NCBI GenBank assembly: GCA_022572885.1
Contig: JACZVC010000008.1
Location: 1 to 64,000, forward strand
Length of the DNA stretch: 64,000 nt
Direction of reading: 5' to 3'
Source: Pseudomonadota bacterium
GTDB lineage: Bacteria; Pseudomonadota; Gammaproteobacteria; Steroidobacterales; MnTg04
Every line of letters starts with the position of its first letter. Positions within the stretch are counted from its first letter, which is position 1. Shown piece after piece: positions 5,661 to 44,548 of the stretch. The position numbers were made by a program, and so were the translations under genes. Under the pieces are notes generated by a model. The model made no database searches. It was given only the letters and a program-made list of their open reading frames with translations, and was not told where the DNA came from.

Positions 5661-5693
5661 TTTCGTGACCCGCGGTCCTGAACCGTTGTCAGG

Positions 5694-6923
5694 TCACATC
5701 CCTTGCAGCGACAGGAAGAAACCGGCGAGCGCGGCATTCATCAGGTTTGCCAGCATGCCTGCGACAACCGCCATTAAACCCAGCCGGGCAATATCGTGGC
5801 GGCGTTTCGGCACGATACTCCCGAGCCCGCCCATCAGTATGGCGATGGACGACAGGTTGGCGAAGCCGCACAGGGCAAACGTCACAATGGCTTGGGTGTG
5901 TACGGACAAAGTGTCCTTGATCTGCACAAAGTTCACATAGGCATAGAATTCGTTGATGACAAATTTCTGCCCGATCAGGTTTCCTGCTACGACCGCCTCC
6001 GACCATGGCACGCCGAGTACGAAGGCAAGCGGCGCGAATAACTGGCCAAGGAAAAATTGTAGGGTGATGTCCTGATAGCCAAACAAACCGGCGACGCCGG
6101 AAATCAGGCCATTGAGCAATGCGATCATCGCCACGAAGGCCAGCAGCATCGCGCCCACATTCAGTGCCAGTTTAAGCCCGATCAGTGCGCCGCTGCCGAC
6201 CGCATCGAAAATGTTGACCGGTTTATCCTCGTCTTTCTCGGGTTCGATCTTCGCATCTGCTGCCCGATCATCCGTTTCCGGCTTGATGATCTTGGCCATC
6301 AACAGGCCGCCAGGCGCCGCCATGAAGCTGGCCGTGATCAGGTAATTGAGATCGACGCCCATGGACGCGTAGGCCGCCATGACGGCACCGGCAATGGTGG
6401 CGCAGCCGCCGGTCATCACGGCGAACAACTCGGACTCCGACATGTTGGCGAGATATGGCTTGACCACCAGGGGCGCTTCGGTGTGGCCGACAAAAATATT
6501 GGATGCCGCCGACATGGATTCGGTACGACTGGTCTGCAGCAGGCGATGAAGACCGCCGCCGACAAAGGCGACTACTTTTTGCATGATCCCCAGGTAATAA
6601 AGCGTCGACATCAATGCCGAAAAGAAAACGATTACCGGTAAGACATTCAGTGCAATCGTAAAACCCAGGCTTTCTTTTGCCCGTGTCCCAAAAACAAATT
6701 CAGTGCCCGCGTTCCCATAATCGATGACATGCTGCACACCAGATACCACGCCACTGAGTAAATCCCTGCCCGCGGGAAAATACAGAATCAGCGCAGCGAT
6801 GGTCGCCTGCAAGGAGAAAGCGAGCACGATCGTTCGATAATTGATTTTCTTGCGGTTATTGGAAAGCAGCATCGCTAGCGCGATGAGAACCATCATTCCG
6901 ACCAGGCTCATGAGTATCGGCAT
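5694..6923 (-). CDS. nupX: Concentrative nucleoside transporter, NupC/NupX family
   Basis: 409 residues with multiple hydrophobic helices. It is a cation-coupled nucleoside symporter of the inner membrane. Conserved family blocks are visible: the AGTEFVFG segment, NIFVGHTEAPLVVKPYL, FAVMTGGCATIAGAVM, and near the C-terminus IGQKFVINEFYAYVNF and FALCGFANLSSIAI. The frame extends nine codons upstream to 6950. However, alignment with NupX-type N-termini (short leader, GM-VLIALAMLLS, then a KKI motif) favours the ATG at 6923. Neither start has a strong Shine-Dalgarno. It lies directly upstream of deoB. NupX is preferred over NupC from overall similarity. Confidence 0.92.
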   Translation of the reverse strand: MPILMSLVGMMVLIALAMLLSNNRKKINYRTIVLAFSLQATIAALILYFPAGRDLLSGVVSGVQHVIDYGNAGTEFVFGTRAKESLGFTIALNVLPVIVFFSALMSTLYYLGIMQKVVAFVGGGLHRLLQTSRTESMSAASNIFVGHTEAPLVVKPYLANMSESELFAVMTGGCATIAGAVMAAYASMGVDLNYLITASFMAAPGGLLMAKIIKPETDDRAADAKIEPEKDEDKPVNIFDAVGSGALIGLKLALNVGAMLLAFVAMIALLNGLISGVAGLFGYQDITLQFFLGQLFAPLAFVLGVPWSEAVVAGNLIGQKFVINEFYAYVNFVQIKDTLSVHTQAIVTFALCGFANLSSIAILMGGLGSIVPKRRHDIARLGLMAVVAGMLANLMNAALAGFFLSLQGM

Positions 6924-22485: not shown

Positions 22486-23169
22486 CTAAACCTCCTCGAT
22501 GTCTTCGAATTCCGCTAACGGGTCGGCATGTATGCAGCGAGCAACGAAAATACCTAAGATATGCACCTTAGGTAGCTGGTGCTTGATGAGATTGGCGCAG
22601 CATTTGAAGTGCTTTCCTGTGGTGAGGACGTCGTCAAATAGTACGATTCCTTTTGACCGTACGTCTTTCGCATTGAGCAGGTCTATATCAATTTCTAAGA
22701 TCTCGGACAGCCGGTTTGGACTTATTCGATCATGGTCGCGGTGATGGTCAGCGTTAACGCTTTCGGTCTGCCGTATCATCTGCCGAATATCGGCGTCGAA
22801 ACCATCAAATGCCTCTGTGAGCGTCTGAGTCAATCGAGGGTCATAGTCGGCATGGCCTTCCGCCTTTGAGCACGGAATTGGCACCCAGGTGTATGACTCA
22901 ATATCGTGCTGCTTGATAGATCTTCGGAGCCCTTGAGCGATCAACCTAATCGCTTGCTTCTTGTAACGTCTACGATAGATATTATTTGCAATTGCGGACG
23001 GTTTGGCCTTGAAATTGAAAATCAATTGGTTTGTAGGGCCGCCGCTATAACCTTGCCCACCGAAATACTCGCCAAAGTAAATACAGCGATCATCATCCGT
23101 TAAGTAGTAGTGACTACCTCGGCTGGTTTCGTCTATCCATGTTAACCGGCTAGGTAGCGAGGTGCTCAT
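22486..23169 (-). CDS. Phosphoribosyltransferase-like protein paired with DprA-like protein
   Basis: 227 residues from the ATG at 23169 (the frame opens at 23205 inside the upstream gene). The type I phosphoribosyltransferase PRPP loop is clear: GIVLFDDVLTTGKHF at about 175-188, the two Asp preceding TTGK. An upstream WVPIPCSKAEGH segment is the usual second strand. ComF-like proteins share the motif, but no zinc ribbon is present. The start overlaps the 3' end of the dprA-like gene by 20 bases, so the two proteins are made together. DprA/SLOG and PRTase domains have been noted together in predicted nucleotide-based conflict systems. A defence or nucleotide-signalling role is inferred. Confidence 0.8.
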   Translation of the reverse strand: MSTSLPSRLTWIDETSRGSHYYLTDDDRCIYFGEYFGGQGYSGGPTNQLIFNFKAKPSAIANNIYRRRYKKQAIRLIAQGLRRSIKQHDIESYTWVPIPCSKAEGHADYDPRLTQTLTEAFDGFDADIRQMIRQTESVNADHHRDHDRISPNRLSEILEIDIDLLNAKDVRSKGIVLFDDVLTTGKHFKCCANLIKHQLPKVHILGIFVARCIHADPLAEFEDIEEV

Positions 23170-23995
23170 GGATTTCGTCGAACTCACGAACACGAATAGC
23201 GCCACGCTCTAAAAACTTAGCGGGCCAATCCAGTTTTGGATCGCGAAAGCAACTGTCAAGAATGAACAGTTTTCGCTCTTGCAAAATCGCGTGTCGTGCC
23301 TGAACCAAGGTACCAGAAGTGTTGCCAGCCTCGACAATTACCGTGGCGTCGGTAAGGGCGGACATAGTGATATTTCGCTCTGGAAAGAAAAGCCGGTTCC
23401 CGCGCCAGGTCTGACGAGAGTACCGAACGATTGGGATTTGACTGATGAGCAAGTATTGATCGGCGATGCGGCGCTGAAGATCCGCATTGTCGGCTGGGTA
23501 TGACGATGTAATCGGCGTACCCAGCACTGCGATGGTTTGGCCGTCCGACTCGATCGCCGTTTCGTGAGCTATCGTATCGATTCCTGCTGCAAGACCGGAC
23601 ACAATAGTAAAGTCGTTTTCAACAAACTTCATCACCAGCTTTTCCGCGCGTCGCCGACCATCATCGGATGGCTTACGGGTTCCTACAATCGCGACGCAAC
23701 GCGTTGAGGTGATATCCCAATTTCCCTGGAAATACAGCAGTTCGACGGGGTGTGCAGCATCGCGGAGCTTCGGCGGATATTCCCCGGCCCCATGAACCCG
23801 AACACCGAAATGTTTGATCCCAAACTCGCGTATTGAACCGATAGCAAGGCGCGAAAATTTCTGAGCTTCCGCCTCAGACACAAAATCAGACGGCACTGCG
23901 TCGGAATGGTCCCGGAATATATCGGCCAATGTCTTGAAAGATGTGCCCTCCCGTGCCCAAAGCGCCTCGTATGCGCCAAGTTCCCGGGCTGGCAT
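23150..23995 (-). CDS. DprA/Smf-like Rossmann (SLOG) protein
   Basis: 281 residues. The DprA Rossmann core is visible: VAIVGTRKPSDDG (about 102-114), IVSGLAAGIDTIAHETAI (about 131-148), FFPERNITMSALTDATVIVE and SGTLVQARHAIL. The C-terminal winged helix of housekeeping DprA is missing, and the N-terminal helical part is divergent. This looks like a specialised paralogue rather than the transformation protein. The frame is open upstream of the ATG (23995) to about 24080 without a good start codon. It is first in a two-gene unit with a phosphoribosyltransferase. A LexA-type box lies about 85 bases upstream. Confidence 0.84.
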   Translation of the reverse strand: MPARELGAYEALWAREGTSFKTLADIFRDHSDAVPSDFVSEAEAQKFSRLAIGSIREFGIKHFGVRVHGAGEYPPKLRDAAHPVELLYFQGNWDITSTRCVAIVGTRKPSDDGRRRAEKLVMKFVENDFTIVSGLAAGIDTIAHETAIESDGQTIAVLGTPITSSYPADNADLQRRIADQYLLISQIPIVRYSRQTWRGNRLFFPERNITMSALTDATVIVEAGNTSGTLVQARHAILQERKLFILDSCFRDPKLDWPAKFLERGAIRVREFDEIHEHLAT

Positions 23996-24079
23996 TACCG
24001 CTCGGGCTCTAAAGTCCGGAGAGGCCGCCTGAGAAATCAGATCACTAATTTTGTCCCACTCCCAGAGTTGTCCAATCAG

Positions 24080-24099
24080 TACTGTATAGAATCACAGTA
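24080..24099 (-). promoter_or_regulatory. LexA/SOS-type operator upstream of the dprA-like operon
   Basis: TACTGTATAGAATCACAGTA contains CTG-N10-CAG and matches 16 of 20 positions of the gammaproteobacterial LexA consensus. On the minus strand it overlaps a plausible promoter (TTGTAA, 18 bases, TATACA). The 24 kb locus lacks other phage repressor genes, so DNA-damage control is the simplest reading. Confidence 0.65.
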
Positions 24100-24169: not shown

Positions 24170-24667
24170 CTATTTGCGATTGCTGCCGAGCTTATCGGCG
24201 AGCGTCGTCAACGCCTGGTCAACCTCATCAGCGAGAATCGCTTTGATCGCCGTGATTTTCTTGACTCCGATCACCATCGGCGCAACCCGAGAGATCATTT
24301 GCTTGAGCCTGGTCCGGATCTCGATCGATGCCGCCGTGACCTGGCGCTCAAATTCGTCAAGATCTCCGACCTGGCCGCGAGCCTTTGCCGCGTCCAGCTC
24401 GGCAATGATCGTCTCGGCCCGGAGCTTGCGCTTTCGCAGCTCGTTGATATCCGTCTCGCGAACATCGCCGATCGCCTCTTTCACGGCCTCATCGATTCGC
24501 CATTGAGCAACCTCGGCCGTGTTTAATTGCCACTCGATGCCCTTCGCTCGATTCGCTCTCGCGATGTACGGACAACCACGGCGAACCATAGACAGCAACG
24601 TATTGCGCTGAACTCCGATGATCCGCGCAAGCTCGGCGAGACTCACAATTTGTCCCTTGTCAGCCAT
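24170..24667 (-). CDS. Phage terminase small subunit-like protein (Nu1/DUF1441), orphan
   Basis: 165 residues. An N-terminal winged-helix/HTH (MADKGQIVSLAELARIIGVQ, then RNTLLSMVRRGCP) is followed by a W-containing strand and a long charged coiled-coil of about 70 residues (ETDINELRKRKLRAETII...). This is the layout of lambda Nu1-like and DUF1441 proteins, which recognise phage DNA for packaging. No large terminase, portal or capsid gene is nearby, so it is a prophage relic or belongs to a phage satellite. It has no obvious Shine-Dalgarno. Confidence 0.75.
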   Translation of the reverse strand: MADKGQIVSLAELARIIGVQRNTLLSMVRRGCPYIARANRAKGIEWQLNTAEVAQWRIDEAVKEAIGDVRETDINELRKRKLRAETIIAELDAAKARGQVGDLDEFERQVTAASIEIRTRLKQMISRVAPMVIGVKKITAIKAILADEVDQALTTLADKLGSNRK

Positions 24668-25011
24668 TGAGGGTGATCATCATCAATCCACTTTCCAGCG
24701 CAAAAAAAAACATGAAACTCTGCGCTGCTGCGTACCCACAATGCCGCCACCGCCGAGGTAGGACCCGAAAGATTCTAGTCGATATGCTAAATGTCATTGT
24801 TCAGTCTCAGTTCTACAGGCAATGTCGTGTCAGATCGAAATAGAATGCTGCCTTCGCCGGAATAAGTAGTTCAATCAATCCGAAGTTTACCGCGGCGACA
24901 GATACATGCCGGCTGTTCTATCAAAAATCTCCGAAACGACAAATTTCTTTAGAAATGCCCTAAGCGTCTGAGGCGCATTTGACAGTTATTTTCTACGCTG
25001 ATGCCGTACCA

Positions 25012-25032
25012 CCAACACACGGATTTTCAGTC
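25012..25032 (+). repeat. Left attachment-like site of the island
   Basis: CCAACACACGGATTTTCAGT plus C matches the tRNA-Phe segment at 44417-44437 in 19 of 21 positions (A/G differences at positions 3 and 8). Confidence 0.55.
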
Positions 25033-25126
25033 GCGAGTTGGTTCGCCTGAGGCTATATATTTCAATGAGTTACCGGGGCGCCCGTTGCCCAATTCGCACT
25101 ACAATGCATAACGATGCAGAGCTAGT

Positions 25127-26015: not shown

Positions 26016-26444
26016 TCAAAAGTGAAGTCTCTTGTGCGTTGGCACAAAAGTTGCGAGAGATTCTTGGTGCGGTGTTGTTCCTATTTCATTTCGCACGAAC
26101 GGAACGAACGAGTCCGACGAATCTGGTATTGCGTAAACTGGAATTAGTGACGAAGCAGCATGTCGAGCGCGTCGGACGTCATTGGTATGAAGGTCGTGGC
26201 AACGGATACAGAGAATAACGACCTCGTCTAAATGTTCAGCGCCCCAGTTGTCATAGTGCCGGTGGTGGCACTCCAGTGCGTATCCATCTTTTTCTGTTCG
26301 CCAGCACGTCCTGCATGCGTGGCGATCCCGCTCAAGGGCCGCGCCGCGTATGACACTCCAATGTCTTGGATTTGGATAGTTCGAGCGCGGTCGAGCAATT
26401 CGATGGCCGTTGGCCACGTAGCCATTGTTTGAAAATGTAGACAT
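26016..26444 (-). CDS. Small HNH endonuclease
   Basis: 142 residues. The HNH core is complete: CRTC zinc pair, ECHHRHYDNWG with the catalytic His, then HLDEVVILCIRCHDLHT with the second zinc pair and final His. Such proteins nick or cut DNA. The tail of about 60 residues is unassigned. A strong AAGGAG precedes the ATG. It lies between a phage-type gene and an unknown gene at the left end of the island and could be a phage-derived or defence nuclease. Confidence 0.88.
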   Translation of the reverse strand: MSTFSNNGYVANGHRIARPRSNYPNPRHWSVIRGAALERDRHACRTCWRTEKDGYALECHHRHYDNWGAEHLDEVVILCIRCHDLHTNDVRRARHAASSLIPVYAIPDSSDSFVPFVRNEIGTTPHQESLATFVPTHKRLHF

Positions 26445-27469: not shown

Positions 27470-28297
27470 TCATAGTTCCCACCGTTGGGATCCCTTGATC
27501 AGCTTGTGGGTCCAGCGCACCACTGGCTCGTCCGCATTAATAACGTACTCCTGTGCTCGCGGATAGGACTGAAAGTAATCCTCCTTCCATGAATTATCTG
27601 TGTGGTAGCTAATCTGCAGATGCCGAAACAACTTGGGATCGAGGGACCATCTGCTTCGCGAGAAACCCAACTTGGTCAAAATAAGCGCGTCCCTAAATTT
27701 GAAGACGCCGGCGCCTTGAACTCCCGCATCGCTACCAAGCGACTTGCTTGCAACGTAAATTACATTTGTTGGCTTCGCCAATCGTTTCTGATTCGCGTGA
27801 GGATGATCCTGGAGCCACTCCGGCAGGTCGACCAGATTATTCGCACAAATAATGTCGCCCACCTGAAGATATCCATAGATCGCATGATATTCGGGGCAAT
27901 CCGTTCGAAATCGCAAACGACTGTCGATCTCCTCAGTATGCCGAAACCACCCATAGAATAAGAACAAATCGCCAACCTGAACGCCCTGGTTTCTTAGATG
28001 GCCAGAGGCGGAGCCTATCTGACCTAACGAGGGCAACCATCCGGCCCCTCTCTTTCGCGCACCTGCAATCAGATCTGGATCGGCGTGGGCTCCTTTGCCA
28101 CCAATCTTCGCCCCGGCGTCCAATTCACCAATGATGCCAGCAATTGTCCTCCCACCCGGTGCTGGTAACGAATCATAGTCAATAGAGTCCAGATCGCTTG
28201 GAATTGGCAGACTGATCATAGTGCCATCTGGGAGTATGGGGTTGGCGTGGCCTCCCACACTGCTGTCAAATCCTTTGCGACTCAGGATGACTTTCAA
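27470..28297 (-). CDS. Nucleotide modification associated domain 3 (Nmad3) protein
   Basis: 275 residues beginning MKVILSRKGFDSSVGGHANP, then ILPDGTMISLPIP, the signature start of Nmad3. Other conserved stretches are GLDPDL-type residues (GAHADPDLIAGA), GDLFLFYGWFR and YLQVGDI. Family members are predicted to act in base modification or its sensing in phage and defence contexts. No catalytic site is proven. The start is TTG, three bases after the Nmad2 stop, and GGAG lies upstream. The exact match of the family start justifies it. It is coupled to the Nmad2 gene. Confidence 0.85.
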   Translation of the reverse strand: MKVILSRKGFDSSVGGHANPILPDGTMISLPIPSDLDSIDYDSLPAPGGRTIAGIIGELDAGAKIGGKGAHADPDLIAGARKRGAGWLPSLGQIGSASGHLRNQGVQVGDLFLFYGWFRHTEEIDSRLRFRTDCPEYHAIYGYLQVGDIICANNLVDLPEWLQDHPHANQKRLAKPTNVIYVASKSLGSDAGVQGAGVFKFRDALILTKLGFSRSRWSLDPKLFRHLQISYHTDNSWKEDYFQSYPRAQEYVINADEPVVRWTHKLIKGSQRWEL

Positions 28298-28299
28298 GT

Positions 28300-28953
28300 T
28301 TAGCCACTCCAGCTATCATCATCTGGCCAATCGTGTGGTGGCGCAATGACCTGTATGCCGTCAGCTTGTTCGAATACGTAGTCGACGAGAAGTTGAACCT
28401 TCTCCTGATCGTGTGTTGGCGCGCCATAAGGGGATACGCCGTTTGGCACCGCTGGCCGCAATTCAACGGGAATATGCAGCGCTTCTCGACCGAAATACAC
28501 GAATCGTTTCCCGATGAGGACGAACTCACCATTGACGTCGCGCTTTCTCGCATCGCCGACGCGACATTTGCTAGAACCATCCCAATGGTGCGGATTACGC
28601 TGTTGCTCAAAGTCGGAGGGCAGCACTGCGCCCGGTAGCCGTGGTTTATAGATATTGTCGCCGGCTCGGCGCACTGCCAGCTCTGAATCTGGGCTCGATC
28701 TCTTGTCGGCGAATCGGTCGTCCTCAAAGTAATCCGCGATACTAAGCTTCTCACCGACGTGCATGATATAGATCAGTCTTTCCCCTCCTGGTCGATCGCC
28801 ACATAGACTCGTGGATGTAAATCCGGCGATCCAATCCCCCTCGACCCTTTTTTGGCGCATTTTCGGCTTGCAGGTCGCGAGTGTCAGAAAACTCCAGAAC
28901 GGATTCGGTGCGAAACCAGTGTCGTGAGTCAACTTATAAGAGTAGAGCGACAT
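28300..28953 (-). CDS. Nucleotide modification associated domain 2 (Nmad2) protein
   Basis: 217 residues beginning MSLYSYKLTHDTGFAPNPFW, with LATCKPKMRQ, VEGDWIAGFTS and the RLIYIMHVGEKLSIADYFED block. This is the Nmad2 pattern, a domain often beside Nmad3 in putative DNA-modification or defence loci. The two genes are two bases apart, Nmad2 first. Mechanism unknown; ligand or modified-base binding is the published prediction. The gap of 230 bases to the divergent STAND gene should hold promoters for both directions. Confidence 0.85.
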   Translation of the reverse strand: MSLYSYKLTHDTGFAPNPFWSFLTLATCKPKMRQKRVEGDWIAGFTSTSLCGDRPGGERLIYIMHVGEKLSIADYFEDDRFADKRSSPDSELAVRRAGDNIYKPRLPGAVLPSDFEQQRNPHHWDGSSKCRVGDARKRDVNGEFVLIGKRFVYFGREALHIPVELRPAVPNGVSPYGAPTHDQEKVQLLVDYVFEQADGIQVIAPPHDWPDDDSWSG

Positions 28954-29183: not shown

Positions 29184-32100
29184 ATGACAGATTATCTCGA
29201 TTTGGGCCGTCAATTCATGCCATTCCAGGACGAAGAGTCTTGGGAGGTGCAGTATCAGTCTTTCTTGTCCGATGAGTTCTATGGTTGTGAGGGCTGGCCG
29301 AGCCTGCTTGAGAACAAGCGCATAGTAATACTGGCGGAAGCAGGCGCAGGAAAGACCGCAGAAATGCGCGAGAAAGCTATGGCGCTAGTCCATGCCGGGT
29401 CAACCGCGTTTTTCGCGACAGTCAACGAACTTGCAGTAGCTCCGTTTTCGGACTCTCTTTTTACAGCCAAAGAGAAACAGCGGTTTCATGACTGGCTCAA
29501 TGGCAATTGCGAAGCAATTTTCTTTCTGGACTCCGTCGACGAAGCACGCTTGTCAGGCCGTAGTTTGCGAAGCGCATTGTCTCGGCTTGCTAATGACATA
29601 GAAGGGCACGCCGCCCGTGCCACGATTTTGATTTCGTGCCGCGTCAGCGACTGGCGGGCGACACAAGATCTAAACACAGTAAAGGAGATTCTCTGTAAGC
29701 CGTCAGAGGTTCCGTCCGAAGATTGGCCTTTGCCGCCGGGCGGCGATGACGAGGCATTATATGCGCCACTTTTCTCGGACACCCGAGAGGCCGAAGAAAA
29801 TGAAGAGCAAACAACGCCGATAAGTTACGAGCTCCATGTGGTAGCGCTTGCCCCGCTAACCTTGAAGCAAGCTAAGCGCTTGGCGGAATTCGTCGGCGTG
29901 TCAAATTCAGAAGAGTTCATCCAAGCAGTACGGGATGCGGACGCTGAGGATCTTGTTAACCGACCTCAAGACTTGCTCAATTTGGCCAGCCTTTGGCGGG
30001 ATAGAACATCTGTCGGATCAAAGTACGAAATTTTGAAGTGGTCGATCGTCCAACGACTTCGCGAGACAAACTTAGATCTTAGCGCGATAGATGCTCTGTC
30101 CGAAGAAAGCGCACATGTTGGCGCGAAAGCTGTTGCAGCCGCTCTAACTTTCGGACAGAGGCGTTTCATTGCCTGGCCTTTGGATACGCCGACGAGCGCC
30201 GCCGACGCTCTTTCGTTGAACCCGCAAGATGTACTTCAAGACTGGAGTGGACAACTTCAAAAAACGTTGCTTAATCGTGCCCTGTTCGATCCAGCTTCTC
30301 ATGGGCGTGTACGGTTCCATCATCGGTCTGTACAAGAGTTGCTATGCGCGGAATGGCTATGCGATCAATTGAGCGCCGGCTGCCCTATACGACGAATATG
30401 GGCGTTGCTTGCCGAAGAAAAGTACGGAAGTGTTCGCATCCGTCCGGCTATGCGTCCGGTTACCGCGTGGCTAGCCCAACTTAACACTCACATCCGCCAT
30501 TTAGTATTGCGAGTTTCGCCTGATCTGCTAATCGAAGGAGGCGATCCAGAACTGCTTCCGATCGCAGCACGCGAGACTGTTCTAGCAAAGTTCGCGGAGA
30601 CCTATCGCGGGCGAAACGATGCTGGCGTAAGCATCGATATCGATCAGATTGAACGGCTAGCTGATCCGGTGCTGGCCAAAAAGATCAGGGCGTTATGGAA
30701 CGAGGGTGCCAAAGACGGGGAATTGCGGGAGTTACTATTGCGAATTATCTGGATTGGTAAGATCAAAGCTTGTAGCGACATCGCGCTACGTTCCGCAATG
30801 AGCAGATGGGGATACTACGAACGCTTGCTGGGTGCCAAGGCAATTGCTGAGTTCGGCAATTCGAGTCAACGACGAAAACTTGCGGACCATCTGATCAAAT
30901 ATGCCAGAACTTATCCGAAAAAGGCCTTCGCGGAAGCTCTACAGGCCGTCTTTCCATCGACACTTACTATTGATGAGCTTGAAGAACTGATCCGGAAATC
31001 TCCGCCAGACAACATGAAGGCCATTCATTCTGGTTTGTACTATGGGCTCACAACAATCGTACAAAGTGCTTATTTGCCAGACAAAGAGGGACTTGTAATT
31101 CTCCTTCAAAATCTTGCTATGGAAAAGCCGTGGATAGATCAACGTTATAGACACTTCTCCAAGCGATTCACAGGCGTGCGAGCACCACTAGCAGATCTCT
31201 GTGCTCGATTGATTCGAGACGCAGATAGTGCAGAGGTGACCGAAAGAGTTGCTGAAGCGACTCGTTTAGTCGGCCGAATATCGGCTCACTCCGGTGAGTT
31301 TCAGATAGAAAAGTCCGCCGAACGTCTTTCGAAAGCTGTGTCCAACAATAGCGCGGTTAACCGCCAATTGTATTGGAGTGCCGTTAAAGAGCAGCGAGCG
31401 AAAAACGTCGACCTTTGGGGGCATTTGGCCGTCAACCCGTATGGCGAGCTGTGGCGAATTCAAGAGAAGGATCTTGACTGGCTATTATCTGACCTGATGA
31501 CTCGGACTCATTCCAATGACAAAACGATGGCACTTGGTGCTTCACTGCAGGCTTGGAATGCGAGCGGTCGAGACCCAAAAATACTCGAGAAAATCCAAGG
31601 CGCTGTAGCCGGATCGGCCGAACTTGAGAGCCAGCTTGAGAGCACGCTCAACCCGCCGGCTCGCGAAGAAGAAGAATGGGAAAGAGAACATGCGGAACAA
31701 ACTGCCGAGTTAAAGGCGCGTCGCGAAGCGGATCGTTCGAAAGTTAAAGAAAGCTGGAGGGAGTTCCGAGATCGTCTCGTCTCCGATCCAACAAGGCTAG
31801 CCGATGGAAAAGCGGTCAATGATCTGTATCACCTTGCGCGATGGCTCGGGCTTCGCAACCGTCGTGATTCATATTCGCTCTCGGATTGGCAGTCTCTTGC
31901 ATCGGCGTTTTCGCCTGAGGTGGCCGAATCTGCTCGACTTGGATTTATTGCGTACTGGCGCACCTATGATCCAGGAGTGGCGAAAGCGCGCAAGAGCTCA
32001 ACGCCAGTATTAGCCTTAATCGCATTGATCGGATTGGAGATCGAGTCCAAAGAAAGTCCCAATTTCCTGACAGGTTGCACAAAAGATGAAGTTGCCTGTG

Positions 32101-33515
32101 CGACTGTGCTAGCACTATATGAAATGAATGGATTTCCTGACTGGGCACCCAATCTGTGGATTAGCCAGCCCAAAACTGCAGAACGTGTCTTGCGCAATGA
32201 AGCGCGATGGGAGCTCGCTAGGACTGCGAGGCAAGGCGCTGCGCACCATGTCATCGCTATTTTTGCCTACGCAGAAGAGCCGTTCCGGTCTTTGGCCGCA
32301 AACTGGATGTTGTGCGAGCTAGAGGAAAAAACGCCAAGAAACGATGCCGCGCTGTCACGAGCGCTGGACGTTATCGCGGGCGCGGAAAGAGACTTCACTA
32401 GTCGTTTAGCGTTACTAGCAGCGTCTAGATTTGGATCAGAGCGCAGAATTTCGCGCCGTCTAGTATGGCTCGCGATTTGGTTGGGAGTGGATTCTAATTC
32501 GGCGCTCGATCATTTGGATTTATGGATCAAGAAGCAAAGGGCGAAATCGAAACAAGACGATCTCGTGATGAATCTCTTAAACGGTATGTTTGATAGCGGA
32601 GTCTATCGATTCGGCTCACAGTATCGCGATTTTGCCAAATTCGAATCTGTCACGCGTCTACTACGAATCGCGTATGCACACGTTCGGCGAGACGACGATA
32701 GGGAACATGAGGGGTCGTATTCACCAAACGCCCGCGACAACGCAGAACAAGCTCGTAGCAATCTTCTTGGCATTCTTCTGGAGATTCCCGGCGAACAGAC
32801 CTACTGGCAGCTTATCGAGATGAGCGAGGAGCCGAACTTTGAAACAGTAAGTGAGCGGTTTCGAGTCTTGGCAGACCGTCGCGCAACTGCGGATGCCGAC
32901 CTGGTGCCCTGGAAGCCTGCCGATGTCGTACGATTCCAAAGAGACTTCGAACGGGCTCCATCGACACTGGAAGATTTGCACCAAGTCGTTCTCGACCGAC
33001 TTTGGGACATTGAAGACGAAATGCAAGTCGGCCGGTTCAGTGGCAAAGCCGCGTTGCGACAGGACCACCTAGAGCGAGCGGAGGAAAGGGTAGTCCAGCT
33101 TGGCATAGCAGAGCAGTTGCGCCTGCGTGCAAGTGGCGCCTATTCGTTGGAGCGGGAACCCGAACTGGAGTCACACGATGAACCGGATATTAGTATACAA
33201 AGAGCGGGGATCGAGGAGGCCCTTCCCGTTGAGATCAAAGTTGCAGATAGTTGGTCATGTACTCAGCTAACCGAAGCAATATCTGGCCAACTGATTGGCC
33301 AATACATGCGACCACGATCAGCGACTTGCGGGCATCTTGTCATTACGCACCACGGCAAGAAGCGCTACTGGCGTCCCGGTAAAGGGTGTCCCCAATTAGA
33401 CTTTCCACGCCTTGTGCAGTCCCTTCAAGCGAAGGCAGATGAGTTTGCTAATGCCGATTCCGACATCGATCGAGTATCGGTTACGGGCATCGATCTAACT
33501 GAATCGCTAAATTAG
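29184..33515 (+). CDS. Large STAND-type NTPase with C-terminal PD-(D/E)xK-like nuclease
   Basis: 1443 residues. P-loop ILAEAGAGKTAEM (Walker A about 51-58) lies near the N-terminus, Walker B EAIFFLDSVDEA at about 110-121 and a sensor strand TILISCRVSDW near 147-157. This is NACHT/AAA-like STAND architecture. A long alpha-helical repeat region of about 900 residues follows, the usual sensor part. Near the end DEPDISIQ, then LPVEIKVADSW (Asp about 1334, Glu about 1350, Lys about 1352) and a Gln-rich helix (TEAISGQLIGQYM) form a PD-(D/E)xK-like site, and a GHLVITHHGKKRYW strand follows. Effector and sensor order is the reverse of most Avs proteins. No Shine-Dalgarno is evident. Its stop overlaps the hsdR stop. 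Probably a phage sensor with a suicide or anti-DNA nuclease (inferred). Confidence 0.82.
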   Translation: MTDYLDLGRQFMPFQDEESWEVQYQSFLSDEFYGCEGWPSLLENKRIVILAEAGAGKTAEMREKAMALVHAGSTAFFATVNELAVAPFSDSLFTAKEKQRFHDWLNGNCEAIFFLDSVDEARLSGRSLRSALSRLANDIEGHAARATILISCRVSDWRATQDLNTVKEILCKPSEVPSEDWPLPPGGDDEALYAPLFSDTREAEENEEQTTPISYELHVVALAPLTLKQAKRLAEFVGVSNSEEFIQAVRDADAEDLVNRPQDLLNLASLWRDRTSVGSKYEILKWSIVQRLRETNLDLSAIDALSEESAHVGAKAVAAALTFGQRRFIAWPLDTPTSAADALSLNPQDVLQDWSGQLQKTLLNRALFDPASHGRVRFHHRSVQELLCAEWLCDQLSAGCPIRRIWALLAEEKYGSVRIRPAMRPVTAWLAQLNTHIRHLVLRVSPDLLIEGGDPELLPIAARETVLAKFAETYRGRNDAGVSIDIDQIERLADPVLAKKIRALWNEGAKDGELRELLLRIIWIGKIKACSDIALRSAMSRWGYYERLLGAKAIAEFGNSSQRRKLADHLIKYARTYPKKAFAEALQAVFPSTLTIDELEELIRKSPPDNMKAIHSGLYYGLTTIVQSAYLPDKEGLVILLQNLAMEKPWIDQRYRHFSKRFTGVRAPLADLCARLIRDADSAEVTERVAEATRLVGRISAHSGEFQIEKSAERLSKAVSNNSAVNRQLYWSAVKEQRAKNVDLWGHLAVNPYGELWRIQEKDLDWLLSDLMTRTHSNDKTMALGASLQAWNASGRDPKILEKIQGAVAGSAELESQLESTLNPPAREEEEWEREHAEQTAELKARREADRSKVKESWREFRDRLVSDPTRLADGKAVNDLYHLARWLGLRNRRDSYSLSDWQSLASAFSPEVAESARLGFIAYWRTYDPGVAKARKSSTPVLALIALIGLEIESKESPNFLTGCTKDEVACATVLALYEMNGFPDWAPNLWISQPKTAERVLRNEARWELARTARQGAAHHVIAIFAYAEEPFRSLAANWMLCELEEKTPRNDAALSRALDVIAGAERDFTSRLALLAASRFGSERRISRRLVWLAIWLGVDSNSALDHLDLWIKKQRAKSKQDDLVMNLLNGMFDSGVYRFGSQYRDFAKFESVTRLLRIAYAHVRRDDDREHEGSYSPNARDNAEQARSNLLGILLEIPGEQTYWQLIEMSEEPNFETVSERFRVLADRRATADADLVPWKPADVVRFQRDFERAPSTLEDLHQVVLDRLWDIEDEMQVGRFSGKAALRQDHLERAEERVVQLGIAEQLRLRASGAYSLEREPELESHDEPDISIQRAGIEEALPVEIKVADSWSCTQLTEAISGQLIGQYMRPRSATCGHLVITHHGKKRYWRPGKGCPQLDFPRLVQSLQAKADEFANADSDIDRVSVTGIDLTESLN

Positions 33516-36500
33516 CCGGCTTCAGCGTTTTGATTCTTCAATAATTTCTCAAACCAAACGACCGCCGCCTCGCCCTCCTTCTTAACGACCTCGTCTATAG
33601 TACGACTGTGTCGAATTACATTTCGCAATTCAGCCATTTGGCCTAATCGCTTTTGCAAAACCAACTTTTGCCCGAGCTTGGGCTCGAATCTCGGCCAAAG
33701 ATCCTTGCTCACTATCGCCGCCTCTAGCTCCCTCAAATCGAAAAACTCCAAGACAGATTCAGTAGTTTGATAATCTTCGCGTTTCTTCGTGGCGTCTTTC
33801 TTCAATAACCCGGCAATTCGCTCGTTAGCTTTTTCAACGACGTGGTTCGGAAAAGACTTCGGATCCGGCCCGATCGATTCTGCAATCAATTTTCTCAGCG
33901 ACAGCTCAACACTCTCGATCGATTCATCGAGATGCCGGACGGAGACTTCCTGATATCCCGAGTCCTCGTAGGTCAGCCCAAACACAGTATCTGTCAGCCA
34001 ATGCCTGAATGACTCGTTATCCTGAAACTGCTTGAACAACTGCGCATCGTCCGAGAATAGCGCCGTTACAACTTGCTTGAGCGCCTTATCATGCTCAATT
34101 CGCGCATTCTGCTTATCCGAATGCTTCTTGGCATTTTGGTAGGCTTGATCGGCGGACACCCTACGCGGTAACTCATCGATGATGCGCTGCTCCATACGCT
34201 CTATGTCATCAAATAGCCCGCCAAACTGGTCGTTGAACGACTTGATAATATTTGACAGGCGGTCCATCTCCGGCTCGGCTACTCGTCCGCCACCGGATGT
34301 CGGCACTGGCCCGATTTCCGCGTCCTCGTCGGGCAATGCTATGGCCATAGTTGCTTTTTTCTCGGCTCGATAGCTGTCCATATCGATCGCCTCGAGAATA
34401 CCTTTCGAGAGATCCTCTTCAATTGGCGCTGGAAGTTTCGGTATTAGGAAATTGAGAAAAATTGAGAGCTTCTCCCAGTCCTGCAAACCATAGTCCAATA
34501 TTGTTGCAAGGAAATCGTATGTTCTAGTAAATGCCTTGGCCTTGCCTTTGAAATCAACCTGGCCGTCCTCATCCAGGTCGGTAACGTATACCGCAACACA
34601 CGCATCCAATATCGGGTCGAGCATATCGCGATCGGCACCTCCTAAGTAGCGCTCCACCACCGTGTCAATCTGCAGCTGCGCATATACCTGGTAAGCATCT
34701 AAATCAGCTTTCAAAGAGTGTAGTTTGTCAGGGTCAGTCTCTTTGCTAAGTATGGTGGTCCGATAGTAATCTGCGAAGGAGTCTTCGATCGTGTCCGTAT
34801 CGTTCTGGAAATCCAAAACGAAGACGTCGTGTTTCTTCGGATGGGATCGATTAAGGCGCGAAAGCGTCTGTACCGCCTTGATCCCAGATAACATCTTGTC
34901 GACGTACATCGTATGCAGCAGCGGCTCGTCATAACCCATCTGGAATTTATCGGCACAGACAAGGAAGCGATACGGGTCTTCCTGAATCCTGTCAGGAATG
35001 TCGTTACTGGAAAAACTATTTAGCTTTGCTTCGGTAACCTTTTCGCCCTTGTAGACCGGTTCTCCCGAGAAGGCGACGATCGCCTTATACGGGCTCTTAT
35101 TTGTCTCCAAGTATTGTTGAATGGCGAAGTAATACTTTATCGCTCGTTGAATACCGTCAGTGACTACCATCGCCCTTGCTTGCCCGCCAATCTTTCGCTG
35201 CCCAATCACCTGCTCTACAAAGTGATCGACCATGATTTCCGCTTTCTCTCGGATGGCTGTTTCGTGGCCTTCAACGTAGCGGCGCAGCTTCTTGCGCGCC
35301 TTTTTCACATCGAATTCAGGGTCGCCCTCAATCGTTTTAGCTAATCGATAGTAACTCTTGACCGGCGTGTAATACTTCAAGACATCAAGAATGAATCCTT
35401 CCTGGATTGCCTGTTTCATGGTGTAACTGTGGAAGGGTCTATGCTTGATTTCGTCGCCCACGCGATACGGAATACCGAACAACTGCAAGGTCTTGTTTTT
35501 CGGCGTCGCCGTGAAAGCGAAGTAGCTGGCATTCGTAAGCAATTTCCGCGATTCAATAATCTTATTGATTTTGTCCTCTGTTGTTTCTTCCTCCTCGGCC
35601 GGCCTTTCGTCCGCTAATGCCATATTCATTTTGGCTGCTGTACGCCCGCCTTGGCTCGAATGAGCTTCGTCAATAATGATCGCGAATCGCTTGCCGCGAT
35701 GTTCCTCGCCGATTGTATCCAGTACGAACGGGAAGGTTTGTACTGTTGATATGACGATTTTCTTGCCGTCTTTGAGGTATTTCGCCAATTGCTTGGTCTT
35801 GGAGGCGCCGTCACCCTCCTTCACCGCGCCGATGATCGAAGAAACCTGTGCGAAGGCTTTGATGGTCTCGCGAATCTGCTTATCGAGAATCCGCCGATCT
35901 GTAATGACGATGATGGTGTCGAATACATCAGCGCCTGCTTGGCGCAGCCCGATTAGCTGATGCGCCAGCCAGGCGATCGAGTTGGACTTGCCGCTGCCGG
36001 CTGAATGCTGGACCAGGTACCGCTTACCTGCGCCACTCCATGCCGCGTCGGCCAGCAGCTTGCGAACGACATCGAGCTGTTGGTATCTGGGGAATATTTG
36101 TACTCGTTTCTTTTTGCCCGTCTTTTCATTCTTTTCTTCCACGATCTGTGCGTAGTTCTCAAGGATATCGGTCAAACCACCGGGCGTAAGGATTCGCCGC
36201 CACAGGTAGTCGGTTTTGATTCCATAGGGATTCGGTGGGTTACCCGCCCCGTGATTCCAACCCTGGTTGAACGGCAAGAACCACGAGGCTTTTGCCATCC
36301 CTTTGGTGCCCTTCAGGTGTGTGCACATCCGCACTTCGTGGTCATCCATTGCGAAATGCACGACGCAGCGCCCAAAAAGGAATAGTGTCTCTCGCGGGTC
36401 ACGATCGCGTTTGTATTGTTCCTCTGCATCTTCGGCGGTTTGCTTCGTGAGGCTGTTCTTTAGCTCGAAGGTCGCTACGGGCAAACCGTTGATAAACAGC

Positions 36501-37567
36501 CCCAGATCCAATGCGCGCTTTGTTTCTTCTCGGCTATACCGCAGTTGACGGGTATTGCTGAATCGATTGAGCGCGTGGCGCTCGACGGCACGCTCATTCT
36601 CGGGGGACGGCGTACCATAAAAGAGATCTACGTGATGCTTGCCGTGACTCACTCCTTTACGCAGCACGTCTATGCTGCCGCGCCGAGTGATCTCGCCCTG
36701 GAGCCGCGAGAGAAACTTCCTGCGCACCGGGCCATCGATGCGCAGTTCTAGCGCCTCGACAAGATTTTCCTGGGTCGCCTCGACGAAACACGCCAACTGC
36801 TCCAGATCGAGCGCGAATTCGCGATCGTAATCCGTGTTCTTGCCTTCGATCCACCCGAACGCCAGCATCGAGTCAAAAATCAACGACTCGAGGCCTTCTT
36901 CTTTAACGTTGGTCACCGGCGGTCGGTCGGCAGGCGTTGGTCGCGCTGTTTCAATTAACTTGATGCCGCCCTCAGGTCCAAATCGGGTTATCGCCTTCGC
37001 ATCATCGCGGATAACTTCATGAATTCGCTCCAATGGCACCGAGAACTCGTCGAGAAAAGCCGCAAGCCGCGGATCTTCTGATTGAAAGCCCAGAATCACT
37101 TTTTCAGCCGCACCGCGTGGCATTTCCAACCGAATCAAAGAGCTGTTCGTTGGCGCCACAGTGACAACTCTAACCTCTGAGATATGTACATCGGAGTAGG
37201 CCGCCATCATGCGTACAAGCCGGGCACGTTCCGCATCAGTCATCGAATCGACAGGTGCGGCGGCAATCAAGTCAATCATTGCCTTTTGGTCAGCCGAAAC
37301 CGGAGGCAGCCGATCACGCTCTAATGCGCACGGCGACTCCTTGAATCGACGCAGCTGGGATTCTGGCCAGTTCTCAGAATGTGAACGCGTATGACAGTTG
37401 GCACACAGCACGACCAAGTTCTCGAAGCTATGATCTTTTGTCTTGGACCAGCGAATAATGTGGGCCTTCTCGAGCGCAACCGGCTCACAGCAGCACGCAC
37501 ATCGATAACGGCACTCGAACATCAAGTCGCGCTGGATAGCCGCAGGGATGGCAGGGCGATTACTCAT
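33512..37567 (-). CDS. hsdR: Type I restriction subunit HsdR with N-terminal HNH nuclease fusion
   Basis: 1351 residues from the ATG at 37567 (GGAGGAA ribosome site; the frame opens at 37615). Residues 19-63 form an HNH domain: CRYRCACC zinc pair, KAHIIRW (His36), ENLVVLCANCH (Asn50, His59). After a linker the normal HsdR follows. Its restriction nuclease has HHVDLFYG and VATFELKNS (E-x-K). The motor has HSAGSGKSNSIAWLAH (Walker A), IIIDEAHSSQGG and FTATPKNKT. A helicase C domain and the C-terminal helical part complete it. HsdR translocates DNA and cuts it when the HsdM/HsdS complex finds unmodified sites. The extra HNH is unusual and gives the protein two nucleases. The start overlaps the hsdS stop by 8 bases. 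Confidence 0.93.
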   Translation of the reverse strand: MSNRPAIPAAIQRDLMFECRYRCACCCEPVALEKAHIIRWSKTKDHSFENLVVLCANCHTRSHSENWPESQLRRFKESPCALERDRLPPVSADQKAMIDLIAAAPVDSMTDAERARLVRMMAAYSDVHISEVRVVTVAPTNSSLIRLEMPRGAAEKVILGFQSEDPRLAAFLDEFSVPLERIHEVIRDDAKAITRFGPEGGIKLIETARPTPADRPPVTNVKEEGLESLIFDSMLAFGWIEGKNTDYDREFALDLEQLACFVEATQENLVEALELRIDGPVRRKFLSRLQGEITRRGSIDVLRKGVSHGKHHVDLFYGTPSPENERAVERHALNRFSNTRQLRYSREETKRALDLGLFINGLPVATFELKNSLTKQTAEDAEEQYKRDRDPRETLFLFGRCVVHFAMDDHEVRMCTHLKGTKGMAKASWFLPFNQGWNHGAGNPPNPYGIKTDYLWRRILTPGGLTDILENYAQIVEEKNEKTGKKKRVQIFPRYQQLDVVRKLLADAAWSGAGKRYLVQHSAGSGKSNSIAWLAHQLIGLRQAGADVFDTIIVITDRRILDKQIRETIKAFAQVSSIIGAVKEGDGASKTKQLAKYLKDGKKIVISTVQTFPFVLDTIGEEHRGKRFAIIIDEAHSSQGGRTAAKMNMALADERPAEEEETTEDKINKIIESRKLLTNASYFAFTATPKNKTLQLFGIPYRVGDEIKHRPFHSYTMKQAIQEGFILDVLKYYTPVKSYYRLAKTIEGDPEFDVKKARKKLRRYVEGHETAIREKAEIMVDHFVEQVIGQRKIGGQARAMVVTDGIQRAIKYYFAIQQYLETNKSPYKAIVAFSGEPVYKGEKVTEAKLNSFSSNDIPDRIQEDPYRFLVCADKFQMGYDEPLLHTMYVDKMLSGIKAVQTLSRLNRSHPKKHDVFVLDFQNDTDTIEDSFADYYRTTILSKETDPDKLHSLKADLDAYQVYAQLQIDTVVERYLGGADRDMLDPILDACVAVYVTDLDEDGQVDFKGKAKAFTRTYDFLATILDYGLQDWEKLSIFLNFLIPKLPAPIEEDLSKGILEAIDMDSYRAEKKATMAIALPDEDAEIGPVPTSGGGRVAEPEMDRLSNIIKSFNDQFGGLFDDIERMEQRIIDELPRRVSADQAYQNAKKHSDKQNARIEHDKALKQVVTALFSDDAQLFKQFQDNESFRHWLTDTVFGLTYEDSGYQEVSVRHLDESIESVELSLRKLIAESIGPDPKSFPNHVVEKANERIAGLLKKDATKKREDYQTTESVLEFFDLRELEAAIVSKDLWPRFEPKLGQKLVLQKRLGQMAELRNVIRHSRTIDEVVKKEGEAAVVWFEKLLKNQNAEAG

Positions 37568-38963
37568 CCACTTCCTCCATATCAAATTCGTCTCCCAACT
37601 CGTCGCCAAGTCCATCGGCGCCAGCGATCAAGGCCTCAGGTGTGGGCAGTTCCGGCAACTGTGCCGCAGCGGCACGAACATCCAGCTTGCCAGTGACGAT
37701 ATCGGACGTAAGCCGCGCGCTATATTCTTGCATCAAGGCGATTTCTCTATTGGCCCGATCAATTGCTGCAGTTGGAATTGCAGTTTCATTATTCACGAAG
37801 TCTACAATTTCTCGCTGCTCGTCTTTTGGAGGAATGACGATTGGTATTTTGAAAAACTCTTTAGGATAGAGGCGAAGACGGGAAGCCCTAATACCTGTGG
37901 AACGAGTTATATAATTTGCTTTGTAAGGCTCAGTACGCAGGAGCAAATCGCCATAGTCGTCAACCAACCGCTTCGGCTCTCTTTGACGATAAACAGCATA
38001 AGCTGGGCTTATGACTCCCTCGTGCTTAGAAAAGCCTAGCGCGGCCATCCAAGCCCACATAGTGTTAATCGCGAGATCGCCGGGCCGACATATCTTGTGC
38101 CCCACATTTGATTCGGCCTTGAACATTGTTATGTTCTTCTCGCTTCTCGGCGTAACTCCCGTTAGATGGGAAACCGACAGCATTTCCTCACGACCGGTTT
38201 TCGAGCGCTCATCAATTTCCTTGAAAACGTTTTTTGCGCGCCTTATATCCCAGTGCTCGGGAATGTCACCAAGCCACTTAACGCCCGAGGACTTGAGCTT
38301 GACGTTAGGGTCCAGGCCGCGAGTAACGGCTCGCTGGACAATGCTCTGCTTTTGCTCGTTCAGCAGCCCAATGAGTCGCCGCTTGGCGCGAATGAAACTA
38401 TCAATCTTTTGGTTTGCATGACCCAGAAAATTAACGATATCTGATTGTTCATCAGGAGGCGGAAGAATTGCGCCTATAACTTTGAAGTGCTCTGGCCGGA
38501 GACTCCACATATCAGACGAAATACCATACGACCATCGTTCTGCTTCTTTAGCAAATCCTGGCGTGCGATAGAGGTGATGAAAATACCACGGGTTAACCGC
38601 ATGTCGAGGCCGGACAACAATGTAGGCGGGACTAATAATTCCTCTCAACTCCGAGGCACCCAACGCCCCTTGCCACGCTCGCATCTTGTTGTATGCAAGC
38701 TCGCCCGGCCGCACAAGCTTATACTTGGACTTATTAGTATTCGAACTATCTTTCTTAGAAGTGCCAGCCAGAAGCTCTCTTTGCTTGATAATTCCGCGAC
38801 CAATAGTTACAGATAGCATCTCTTCTTCTGGGTGATTCTGATCTTTCACCTCATCAAATAAAGCCCGATTGGGTAATAGAGACCAATGAATTGGTACTCG
38901 ACCGAGCCATTTCTGACCAGAATCTTTGTACTCGGAGTACGGTTTGAGGTTTCTAATCATCAC
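37560..38963 (-). CDS. hsdS: Type I restriction specificity subunit HsdS
   Basis: 467 residues with two target-recognition domains. Each begins with a WLG-IP-HW block (KWLGRVPIHW near 18-28 and KWLGDIPEHW near 233-243) and ends in a helical spacer with a PPPDEQSDIV or PPKDEQREIV signature. It sets the DNA sequence recognised by the methylase and restriction complex. The C-terminus is extended by an acidic tail (DELGDEFDMEEVDE). Its ATG overlaps the stop of the DUF4062 gene (ATGA), and its stop overlaps hsdR. The target sequence cannot be predicted by eye. Confidence 0.95.
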   Translation of the reverse strand: MMIRNLKPYSEYKDSGQKWLGRVPIHWSLLPNRALFDEVKDQNHPEEEMLSVTIGRGIIKQRELLAGTSKKDSSNTNKSKYKLVRPGELAYNKMRAWQGALGASELRGIISPAYIVVRPRHAVNPWYFHHLYRTPGFAKEAERWSYGISSDMWSLRPEHFKVIGAILPPPDEQSDIVNFLGHANQKIDSFIRAKRRLIGLLNEQKQSIVQRAVTRGLDPNVKLKSSGVKWLGDIPEHWDIRRAKNVFKEIDERSKTGREEMLSVSHLTGVTPRSEKNITMFKAESNVGHKICRPGDLAINTMWAWMAALGFSKHEGVISPAYAVYRQREPKRLVDDYGDLLLRTEPYKANYITRSTGIRASRLRLYPKEFFKIPIVIPPKDEQREIVDFVNNETAIPTAAIDRANREIALMQEYSARLTSDIVTGKLDVRAAAAQLPELPTPEALIAGADGLGDELGDEFDMEEVDE

Positions 38964-40081
38964 TTCGCCTCTTTTGCGATGGCACGCACAATCCGCGCTC
39001 TTGCCATCGCCCGCTCTGCCATAAGCGATTCTTCACCCGTCTGGTTTAGCCATTCGAAAAAGCGTTGAACTCCGTGGCGCGTGTTCGCCTCGTCGCGACA
39101 GTTGGTGATGAATACGAACTGCACTTTCTGCACAGGGTCGGCCACAAAAACACCGAACGGTGCTGTGACAACTGTTGCATCCGGAAAGCCCAGCAGTTTC
39201 ATCGCCTGCCCTTCGGTCGCATTCTTGTTACAGGCAATGACATGCACCGGGCCACCCCGCTTGCCGGCCAACGCATCGGCGAGCAGATGGTCACGAAGGA
39301 ATGGTTGCCCGACCATCTCCCTAGCTGCACCTACAGAAAGAGAAGCCGGTATTGCGTGAGGCTCGACAAGAATGTCTCGCCCATCGACTTGAGCAAACAC
39401 TTTCTTACCATCTTCCTCCGATCCGCTACGGGCAAGCATTGAATCCCGTAGCACACGAACCATCTCGGCCTGACGAGTGGCGAAGTCGAGCCGCGTCCAA
39501 TCCAGCGCCGCACCGCTGTGAAACTTCCCTTTGGATGCTTCGCGGACGCCCGATTGCGTTAATGAGACGATGGCTTCATGAAGCGCCTCCTGAACACGCT
39601 TTTTGAGGTCTTTTACTGTCTTAACCGTCCCGCCGCGAAACAGGCTTTGCTGTGCCACGTAATCCTGAAAGCGTTGGTTGCGACTGCCTTCTGCGGTCTT
39701 TTTAGTCAGAATGTTGTCGAGCCCGATCAAACGTACTTTGGCCGGTGCGATGGACAAACCCGTCATCAGCTCCGCATGGCAAATACCTATATCGCCGGCA
39801 CCATCGGCCCAGCCGGCATTGCCGTTGCTGATGACGATCAGGACATCACAATCTTTAACCGCTTGCAGGCAGACATCCCAGGAATCCCAGGTGCCGCCCT
39901 TCGGCGGTGTTTCTTCGTTGATCCAGACTTCGAAAGGCTTCTTGCCCAGCAGCTCTATCGCTTCGATGTCCTTTTTGAGCTCTTTGCGTATGGCGGACAA
40001 GTCCGTCTTTTTCTGGCCGGCCGGAAAGGGATCGACACAGCGGCTGGAGATCATGACGCGAAGTTTAGAAGATGCCGCCAT
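38960..40081 (-). CDS. DUF4062/TIR-like protein inside the hsd operon
   Basis: 373 residues. The N-terminal 150 residues are DUF4062-like: LRVMISSRCVDPFP, then PFEVWINEETPPKGGTWDSW, VKDCDVLIVISNGNAGW and GICHAELMTGLS. This is a Rossmann-like fold related to TIR and SLOG, where CHAEL holds a Glu in the position of the TIR catalytic residue. The rest is an unassigned mixed domain. It sits two bases after hsdM and overlaps hsdS, so it is made with the restriction enzyme. It could be a backup effector or a regulator of restriction. Enzyme activity is not shown by sequence. Confidence 0.75.
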   Translation of the reverse strand: MAASSKLRVMISSRCVDPFPAGQKKTDLSAIRKELKKDIEAIELLGKKPFEVWINEETPPKGGTWDSWDVCLQAVKDCDVLIVISNGNAGWADGAGDIGICHAELMTGLSIAPAKVRLIGLDNILTKKTAEGSRNQRFQDYVAQQSLFRGGTVKTVKDLKKRVQEALHEAIVSLTQSGVREASKGKFHSGAALDWTRLDFATRQAEMVRVLRDSMLARSGSEEDGKKVFAQVDGRDILVEPHAIPASLSVGAAREMVGQPFLRDHLLADALAGKRGGPVHVIACNKNATEGQAMKLLGFPDATVVTAPFGVFVADPVQKVQFVFITNCRDEANTRHGVQRFFEWLNQTGEESLMAERAMARARIVRAIAKEAK

Positions 40082-40083
40082 CG

Positions 40084-44390: not shown

Positions 44391-44466
<76 letters not shown>

Positions 44467-44493: not shown

Positions 44494-44548
44494 GTGCGGA
44501 TTTTCAGTCCTTGCCTACCTTGTCGCTTTGCGACCCCGCTACCTGGCC
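44494..44548 (-). pseudogene. Degenerate tRNA-Phe-like 5' half
   Basis: On the minus strand GGCCAGGTAGC, an aberrant insert, AAGGTAGGCAAGG and GGACTGAAAATCCGC follow the order acceptor, D arm, anticodon arm of tRNA-Phe. The anticodon arm is identical over 15 bases to the intact gene 72 bases away. No T arm or 3' acceptor follows. It looks like a decayed copy from an earlier integration event. Confidence 0.5.

What the first reader, a model, noticed from the sequence alone, without database searches (positions are those of the whole stretch)
22486..24099. SOS-controlled DprA-like/phosphoribosyltransferase pair
A LexA-type box (16/20 to consensus) precedes an operon coding for a DprA Rossmann protein without its winged helix and an overlapping PRTase with an intact PRPP loop. 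DprA/SLOG and PRTase domains have been predicted to work in nucleotide-based conflict systems. DNA-damage induction would be a new control layer, possibly triggering a response to phage-induced damage.
Basis: partly seen in the sequence, partly recalled or inferred. Interest (0 to 1): 0.75.

Follow-up and report, generated by a model that had tools for sequence, protein, structure and literature searches.

The report
SOS-controlled ShosTA phage-defence toxin–antitoxin
The gene pair is a known suicide-type virus defence of bacteria (ShosTA), and its promoter carries a near-copy of the cell's own DNA-damage switch; the same wiring recurs in many relatives in each lineage's own DNA code, so DNA damage probably turns this defence on.

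Summary
On the minus strand a LexA-type box (24080-24099, 16/20 to consensus) precedes a DprA-like gene and an overlapping phosphoribosyltransferase gene with an intact PRPP loop. The pair is a known anti-phage toxin-antitoxin system: PADLOC calls it ShosA (1.1e-97) and ShosT (2.1e-38). It belongs to a short-toxin subfamily, distant from the long form with solved structures. The new part is the control. In its own genome only two sites lie within two mismatches of the lexA gene's operator: that operator and this box. Of 100 non-redundant ShosA upstreams, 12 carry CTGT-N8-ACAG and 21 the alphaproteobacterial LexA box GTTC-N7-GTTC (about 0.5 and 1.1 expected), none both, and other spacings give 0-3. 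The motif follows the host: alpha box in 10/17 alphaproteobacterial and 0/20 gamma/beta loci; gamma box in 0/17 and 4/20. The tree needs 8 and 10 changes, so the wiring recurs. The studied long-form E. coli ShosTA lacks a box. Verdict: known system with recurrent, lineage-matched SOS control; LexA binding, induction and phage effect are untested here.

The parts
24080..24099 (-). LexA-type operator TACTGTGATTCTATACAGTA (palindromic), 32 nt core-to-start before shosA
   Evidence: Exact CTGT-N8-ACAG core; 15/16 to the genome's lexA operator, the only other site within 2 mismatches genome-wide; kept in the closest relatives L125, L126 and, with one arm mismatch, L127
24059..24063 (-). Probable ribosome-binding site GGGAG, 9 nt before the ATT start
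   Evidence: Read from sequence; inference
23150..24049 (-). shosA, DprA-like antitoxin, 299 codons if started at ATT 24049-24047 (or 281 aa from ATG 23995)
   Evidence: PADLOC ShosA PDLC03961 1.1e-97; Pfam DNA_processg_A 1.1e-55; 74% identity to L126 over 297 residues from the upstream start
22486..23169 (-). shosT, PRTase toxin, 227 aa, overlaps shosA by 20 nt
   Evidence: PADLOC ShosT PDLC03962 2.1e-38; model pLDDT 94.6 with ComF and ShosT as best structural matches
22612..22647 (-). PRPP loop IVLFDDVLTTGK of ShosT (residues 175-186)
   Evidence: D179, D180 and G185 invariant in 58 homologues

Best explanation
This is a ShosTA toxin-antitoxin operon of the short-toxin subfamily, sporadically held and so probably horizontally acquired, repressed by the host LexA and induced by the SOS response. 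Shown here: family membership of both proteins, the intact catalytic loop, and a LexA operator that matches the genome's own lexA operator and recurs, in the host's own motif, before many relatives. Inferred: LexA keeps the operon low; when infection or damage makes single-stranded DNA, RecA promotes LexA self-cleavage and the operon is transcribed. ShosA, reported to bind DNA, holds ShosT in check until DNA intermediates or a phage factor disturb it; freed ShosT then consumes PRPP, upsets purine pools and stops the infected cell. SOS control gives a low resting state and a large toxin pool when DNA is under attack, and a self-amplifying loop, because ShosT activity is itself reported to cause DNA duplications and filamentation.
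For: Family. Own-genome operator match. LexA identity: TIGR00498. Family-wide, spacing-specific enrichment of two LexA motifs against shuffles and against dprA-like controls. Host-matched motif swap: (alpha box 10/17 vs 0/20, Fisher p 5.6e-5). Position and palindrome kept in the nearest relatives. Recurrent gain or loss on the tree. Absent from all four same-genus genomes searched. Toxin mechanism and phage protection of the wider family: PMC12593503, PMC9122126.
Against: 16 of 20 gamma/beta loci, the Pseudomonas phage clade and the Bacteroidota clade have no exact box; the long-form E. coli loci have none. The gamma-box contrast between host groups alone is not significant (4/20 vs 0/17, p 0.11). 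No binding or expression data exist here. The ATT start raises the question whether shosA is well translated.
Confidence: 0.7

Rival explanations
1. SOS control serves the mobile element and not the cell: ShosTA rides on prophages, plasmids and islands, and LexA control ties it to element induction, as an addiction or superinfection-exclusion cargo that is expressed when the element wakes.
For: Many homologues lie on viral contigs, phages or plasmids; the window's pair lies between a terminase-small-subunit-like gene and an island that ends with an integrase beside tRNA-Phe.
Against: Box-bearing copies also sit on large chromosomal contigs such as Labrenzia L136 and Sinorhizobium L146. It is compatible with the best explanation on LexA control and differs only on who benefits.
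Confidence: 0.2
2. The box is a chance or relic palindrome without function.
For: The bare CTGT-N8-ACAG core is not enriched genome-wide (22 vs 22 in the reversed control), and many homologues have no box.
Against: Near-identity to the own lexA operator, conservation in the closest relatives, spacing-specific excess across the family and host-matched motif.
Confidence: 0.06
3. The site is bound by a phage or island repressor of the LexA/CI kind instead of the host LexA.
For: The neighbourhood holds phage-like genes, and such repressors can share operators with LexA (general knowledge).
Against: The motif follows the host lineage across unrelated elements and matches this genome's own lexA operator at 15/16.
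Confidence: 0.04

Closest known systems
ShosTA, short-toxin subfamily (PADLOC PDLC03961 ShosA and PDLC03962 ShosT)
   Same: Both proteins match at full length, same gene order, overlapping genes, PRPP loop intact
   Different: Nothing structural; a LexA operator before the operon, found here in about a third of the sampled family, was not found described in the held literature
ShosTA, long form with solved structures (PDB 8zvb, 8zvc, 8zvd for ShosT; 9vzo for ShosA)
   Same: DprA-like antitoxin plus PRTase toxin; the PRTase core aligns at Z 11.8
   Different: Toxin about twice as long; ShosA only distantly alike (95 bits); no LexA box upstream in the E. coli copies
ComF (ComFC) competence PRTase, H. 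pylori 7p0h
   Same: Best structural match of the ShosT model, Z 12.8 over 167 residues; weak comF profile match 1.4e-6
   Different: 16% identity, far below the ComF family cut-off (28.4 against 233.55 bits); partner is a DprA without winged helix in one operon
LexA-controlled toxin-antitoxin loci of E. coli (such as dinB-yafNO)
   Same: A toxin-antitoxin operon under a LexA operator (established knowledge; PMC2814082 turned up and was not read)
   Different: Unrelated mRNA-interferase toxins; not a PRTase defence system

Membership tests
ShosTA toxin-antitoxin / defence system | ShosA: DprA-family protein matching the ShosA model | tested here: met
   PDLC03961 1.1e-97 over 7-279
ShosTA toxin-antitoxin / defence system | ShosT: PRTase-fold toxin matching the ShosT model, with PRPP loop | tested here: met
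   PDLC03962 2.1e-38; loop invariant residues present; fold matches solved ShosT
ShosTA toxin-antitoxin / defence system | Two-gene operon, antitoxin first, toxin next to it | tested here: met
   Same strand, 20-nt overlap
ShosTA toxin-antitoxin / defence system | Toxicity of ShosT alone, neutralised by ShosA; phage protection | not testable with these tools
   Needs expression and phage challenge; known for relatives (PMC9122126, PMC12593503)
LexA (SOS) regulon of this genome | Operator of the genome's own LexA type in the promoter region | tested here: met
   15/16 to the lexA operator; only two such sites within 2 mismatches in the genome; 32 nt before the start
LexA (SOS) regulon of this genome | Conservation of the operator before orthologues | tested here: met
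   Closest relatives L125, L126 exact and L127 with one mismatch; family-wide excess with host-matched motif
LexA (SOS) regulon of this genome | LexA binding and damage induction | not testable with these tools
   Needs gel shift and reporter assays
ComF family | Match above the TIGR00201 cut-off | tested here: not met
   28.4 bits against 233.55, although ComF is the nearest solved fold

The most novel reading that the evidence does not exclude
Short-form ShosTA is a DNA-damage-licensed abortive-infection system in which LexA control has been gained repeatedly and rewritten in the LexA code of each new host lineage after horizontal transfer, so that the SOS response is the arming step of an immune suicide module built from ComF-like and DprA-like proteins.
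Probability: 0.45. Interest if true: 0.68.

Novelty: new variant of a known kind. Interest (0 to 1): 0.52.

Why it matters
ShosTA is known to defend against phage and a toxin mechanism has been described, but the papers found here do not describe how its expression is controlled. A LexA operator that follows the host's own motif across alpha-, beta- and gammaproteobacterial loci says that coupling to DNA damage is selected and not incidental. It would mean that SOS inducers, including some antibiotics, arm a suicide-type defence, and it gives a simple test in laboratory strains: operator mutants should lose damage induction and perhaps phage protection.

Tried and rejected
The whole-genome search with the ShosA model returned mostly ordinary dprA, so ShosA-specific alignments were used. 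ShosT alignments were too diverse for the genome scan; the ShosA alignment worked. Bacillus-type GAAC-N4-GTTC and Xanthomonas-type TTAG-N6-TACTA boxes showed no excess (1 and 1 of 88). recA of this genome shows no clear box upstream by eye. No sigma-70 consensus promoter was reported at the shosA start. No clear attachment-site repeat was found for the island, only 12-14 nt matches to tRNA-Phe. The second DprA-PRTase pair of the rhizobial plasmids has no alpha box in the stretch examined, and a viral-contig scan with that DprA found nothing. Papers were searched for SOS control of ShosTA without a hit; the primary ShosTA structure paper (Pu et al. 2025, known here only through a review) is not in the library, so prior mention cannot be excluded.

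Full report
What is there. On the minus strand, in order of transcription: a LexA-type palindrome TACTGTGATTCTATACAGTA (24099-24080), a GGGAG ribosome site, shosA (24049-23150) and shosT (23169-22486), overlapping by 20 nt. PADLOC identifies the two proteins as ShosA (1.1e-97) and ShosT (2.1e-38). Pfam sees only the DprA Rossmann domain in ShosA and weak PRTase matches in ShosT. The match of ShosA to the 374-position DprA model stops at 284, where the protein ends, so the winged helix is absent. The ORF-finder start of shosA (ATG 23995) cuts off 18 residues that are conserved in relatives; those relatives start with ATG where this sequence has ATT.

The toxin. An alignment of 58 ShosT proteins shows D179, D180 and G185 of the PRPP loop invariant. 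The AlphaFold model (pLDDT 94.6) matches solved ShosT by Foldseek (best E 5.6e-4). In the second look it matches H. pylori ComF at Z 12.8 (rmsd 3.3, 167 residues) and ShosT with PRPP-Mg at Z 11.8 (rmsd 3.9, 182 residues), above the bulk of purine PRTases at 7-8. Two ShosTA subfamilies can be told apart: the long form with solved structures (PADLOC PDLC02997 and PDLC03012) and the short form of this window (PDLC03961 and PDLC03962). Some rhizobial plasmids carry a short pair beside a convergent DprA-PRTase pair of the long kind.

The box against its own genome. The genome has one LexA (TIGR00498) with two operators just upstream, CTGTATATAATCACAG and CTGTTTATTTGCACAG. The shosA box reads CTGTATAGAATCACAG on the plus strand, 15/16 identical to the first. 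Within two mismatches of that operator the 2.76-Mb genome holds exactly two sites, the lexA operator and the shosA box, and none for the reversed pattern. The bare core CTGT-N8-ACAG is not enriched genome-wide (22 against 22 in the reversed control), so most bare cores are chance; the case rests on the full operator and on conservation.

The box across the family. Homologues came from phages, plasmids, viral contigs and genomes. True ShosA stands apart from dprA by profile score. The closest relatives (L125, L126, L127; 75-77% identical) keep the palindrome 22-25 nt before ATG, L127 with one arm mismatch, in upstream DNA that is otherwise hard to align. In 88 non-redundant upstreams CTGT-N8-ACAG occurs in 9 (shuffled mean 0.41, largest 2), and GTTC-N7-GTTC, the alphaproteobacterial LexA box (established knowledge), in 21 (shuffled mean 0.95, largest 3); neighbouring spacings give 0-4. 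In the extended set of 100 the numbers are 12 and 21, with none carrying both. The alpha box is in 10 of 17 loci of alphaproteobacterial host and 0 of 20 gamma/beta loci (17 assigned by record, 3 of the window's own class); the gamma box is in 4 of 20 and 0 of 17 (the second contrast alone is not significant, p 0.11). Among 67 upstreams of dprA and distant dprA-like genes there was no gamma box and 4 alpha boxes; all four belong to short DprA-like proteins of alphaproteobacteria, three with a weakly ShosT-like gene nearby, so they may be related systems. A few of the 21 alpha hits are likely chance: L049 (inside the gene start), L128 (far upstream) and L054 (in an enterobacterial clade). On a 100-protein tree the gamma box needs 8 changes and the alpha box 10, so the control has come or gone many times.

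Limits. Sixteen of 20 gamma/beta loci, the Pseudomonas phage clade and the Bacteroidota clade have no exact box, and the E. coli long form has none within 300 nt. LexA control is a recurrent option and not a defining trait of ShosTA.

How it probably works. From the literature: a DprA-PRTase pair of P2-like phages protects against T7 and lambda (PMC9122126). ShosT is reported to act as a phosphoribosyltransferase and pyrophosphatase that disturbs purine metabolism and leads to DNA duplications and filamentation; ShosA binds DNA and is thought to promote recombination; T7 Gp0.7 is a trigger (PMC12593503, reviewing Pu et al. 2025). Sensing of phage DNA-protein intermediates has also been suggested (PMC10732053). 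Inference: LexA keeps the operon low; infection or damage induces it and builds a toxin pool guarded by ShosA; disturbance of ShosA by DNA structures or phage factors frees ShosT. A toxin that itself provokes DNA trouble, placed under SOS control, makes a self-amplifying switch. Not shown: binding, induction, or whether cell or element benefits.

Context. The window's genome is the only one of five in its genus to carry ShosT, which fits horizontal acquisition. Next to the pair lie a terminase-small-subunit-like gene, an HNH gene, Nmad2 and Nmad3 genes, a large protein with a weak STAND NTPase match, a type I restriction-modification locus and an integrase beside tRNA-Phe.

Novelty. The system is known. 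SOS control of ShosTA was not found in the held literature, with the caveat that the primary structure paper could not be read. Toxin-antitoxin loci with LexA boxes are known in E. coli (established knowledge). Hence: new variant of a known kind.

Noticed in passing
24047-24049 (minus strand): shosA has ATT where its three closest relatives have the ATG start, with a good GGGAG site 9 nt upstream. Either a rare AUU start (as in infC) that lowers antitoxin translation, or a mutation or sequencing error.
   Followed up: partly
24170-44466: Defence-type island: terminase small subunit-like gene (24170-24667), HNH gene (26016-26444), Nmad3 (27470-28297) and Nmad2 (28300-28953), a 1443-aa protein with weak STAND NTPase match (29184-33515), type I restriction-modification genes R, S and M with a DUF4062 gene between S and M (33512-42489), integrase (43241-44323) beside tRNA-Phe (44391-44466).
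   Followed up: partly
25003-25034 and 44496-44509: Short pieces of tRNA-Phe sequence (12-14 nt exact) away from the tRNA gene, possibly remnants of attachment sites of successive insertions.
   Followed up: partly
L068, L070, L071 (about 3650-5890, minus strand): Rhizobial plasmids carry two ShosTA systems facing each other: a short pair with an alpha LexA box and a convergent long-type DprA-PRTase pair without one.
   Followed up: partly
L165, L168, L175, L189: Short DprA-like proteins of Bradyrhizobium and Novosphingobium, three of them with a weakly ShosT-like gene nearby, also have an alpha LexA box near the gene start; perhaps a further SOS-controlled DprA-PRTase family.
   Followed up: no
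L272:1489-2178 (G412, same order as the window): A ShosT relative (50% identical to the window's) without any ShosA in the 3.7-kb locus; an orphan toxin or another neutraliser.
   Followed up: partly
L011:1482-1516 (G000:C10:13955-13989): lexA of this genome has two operators 3 nt apart, and a gene with a weak RecA-family match follows lexA, reminiscent of lexA-imuA SOS operons.
   Followed up: no
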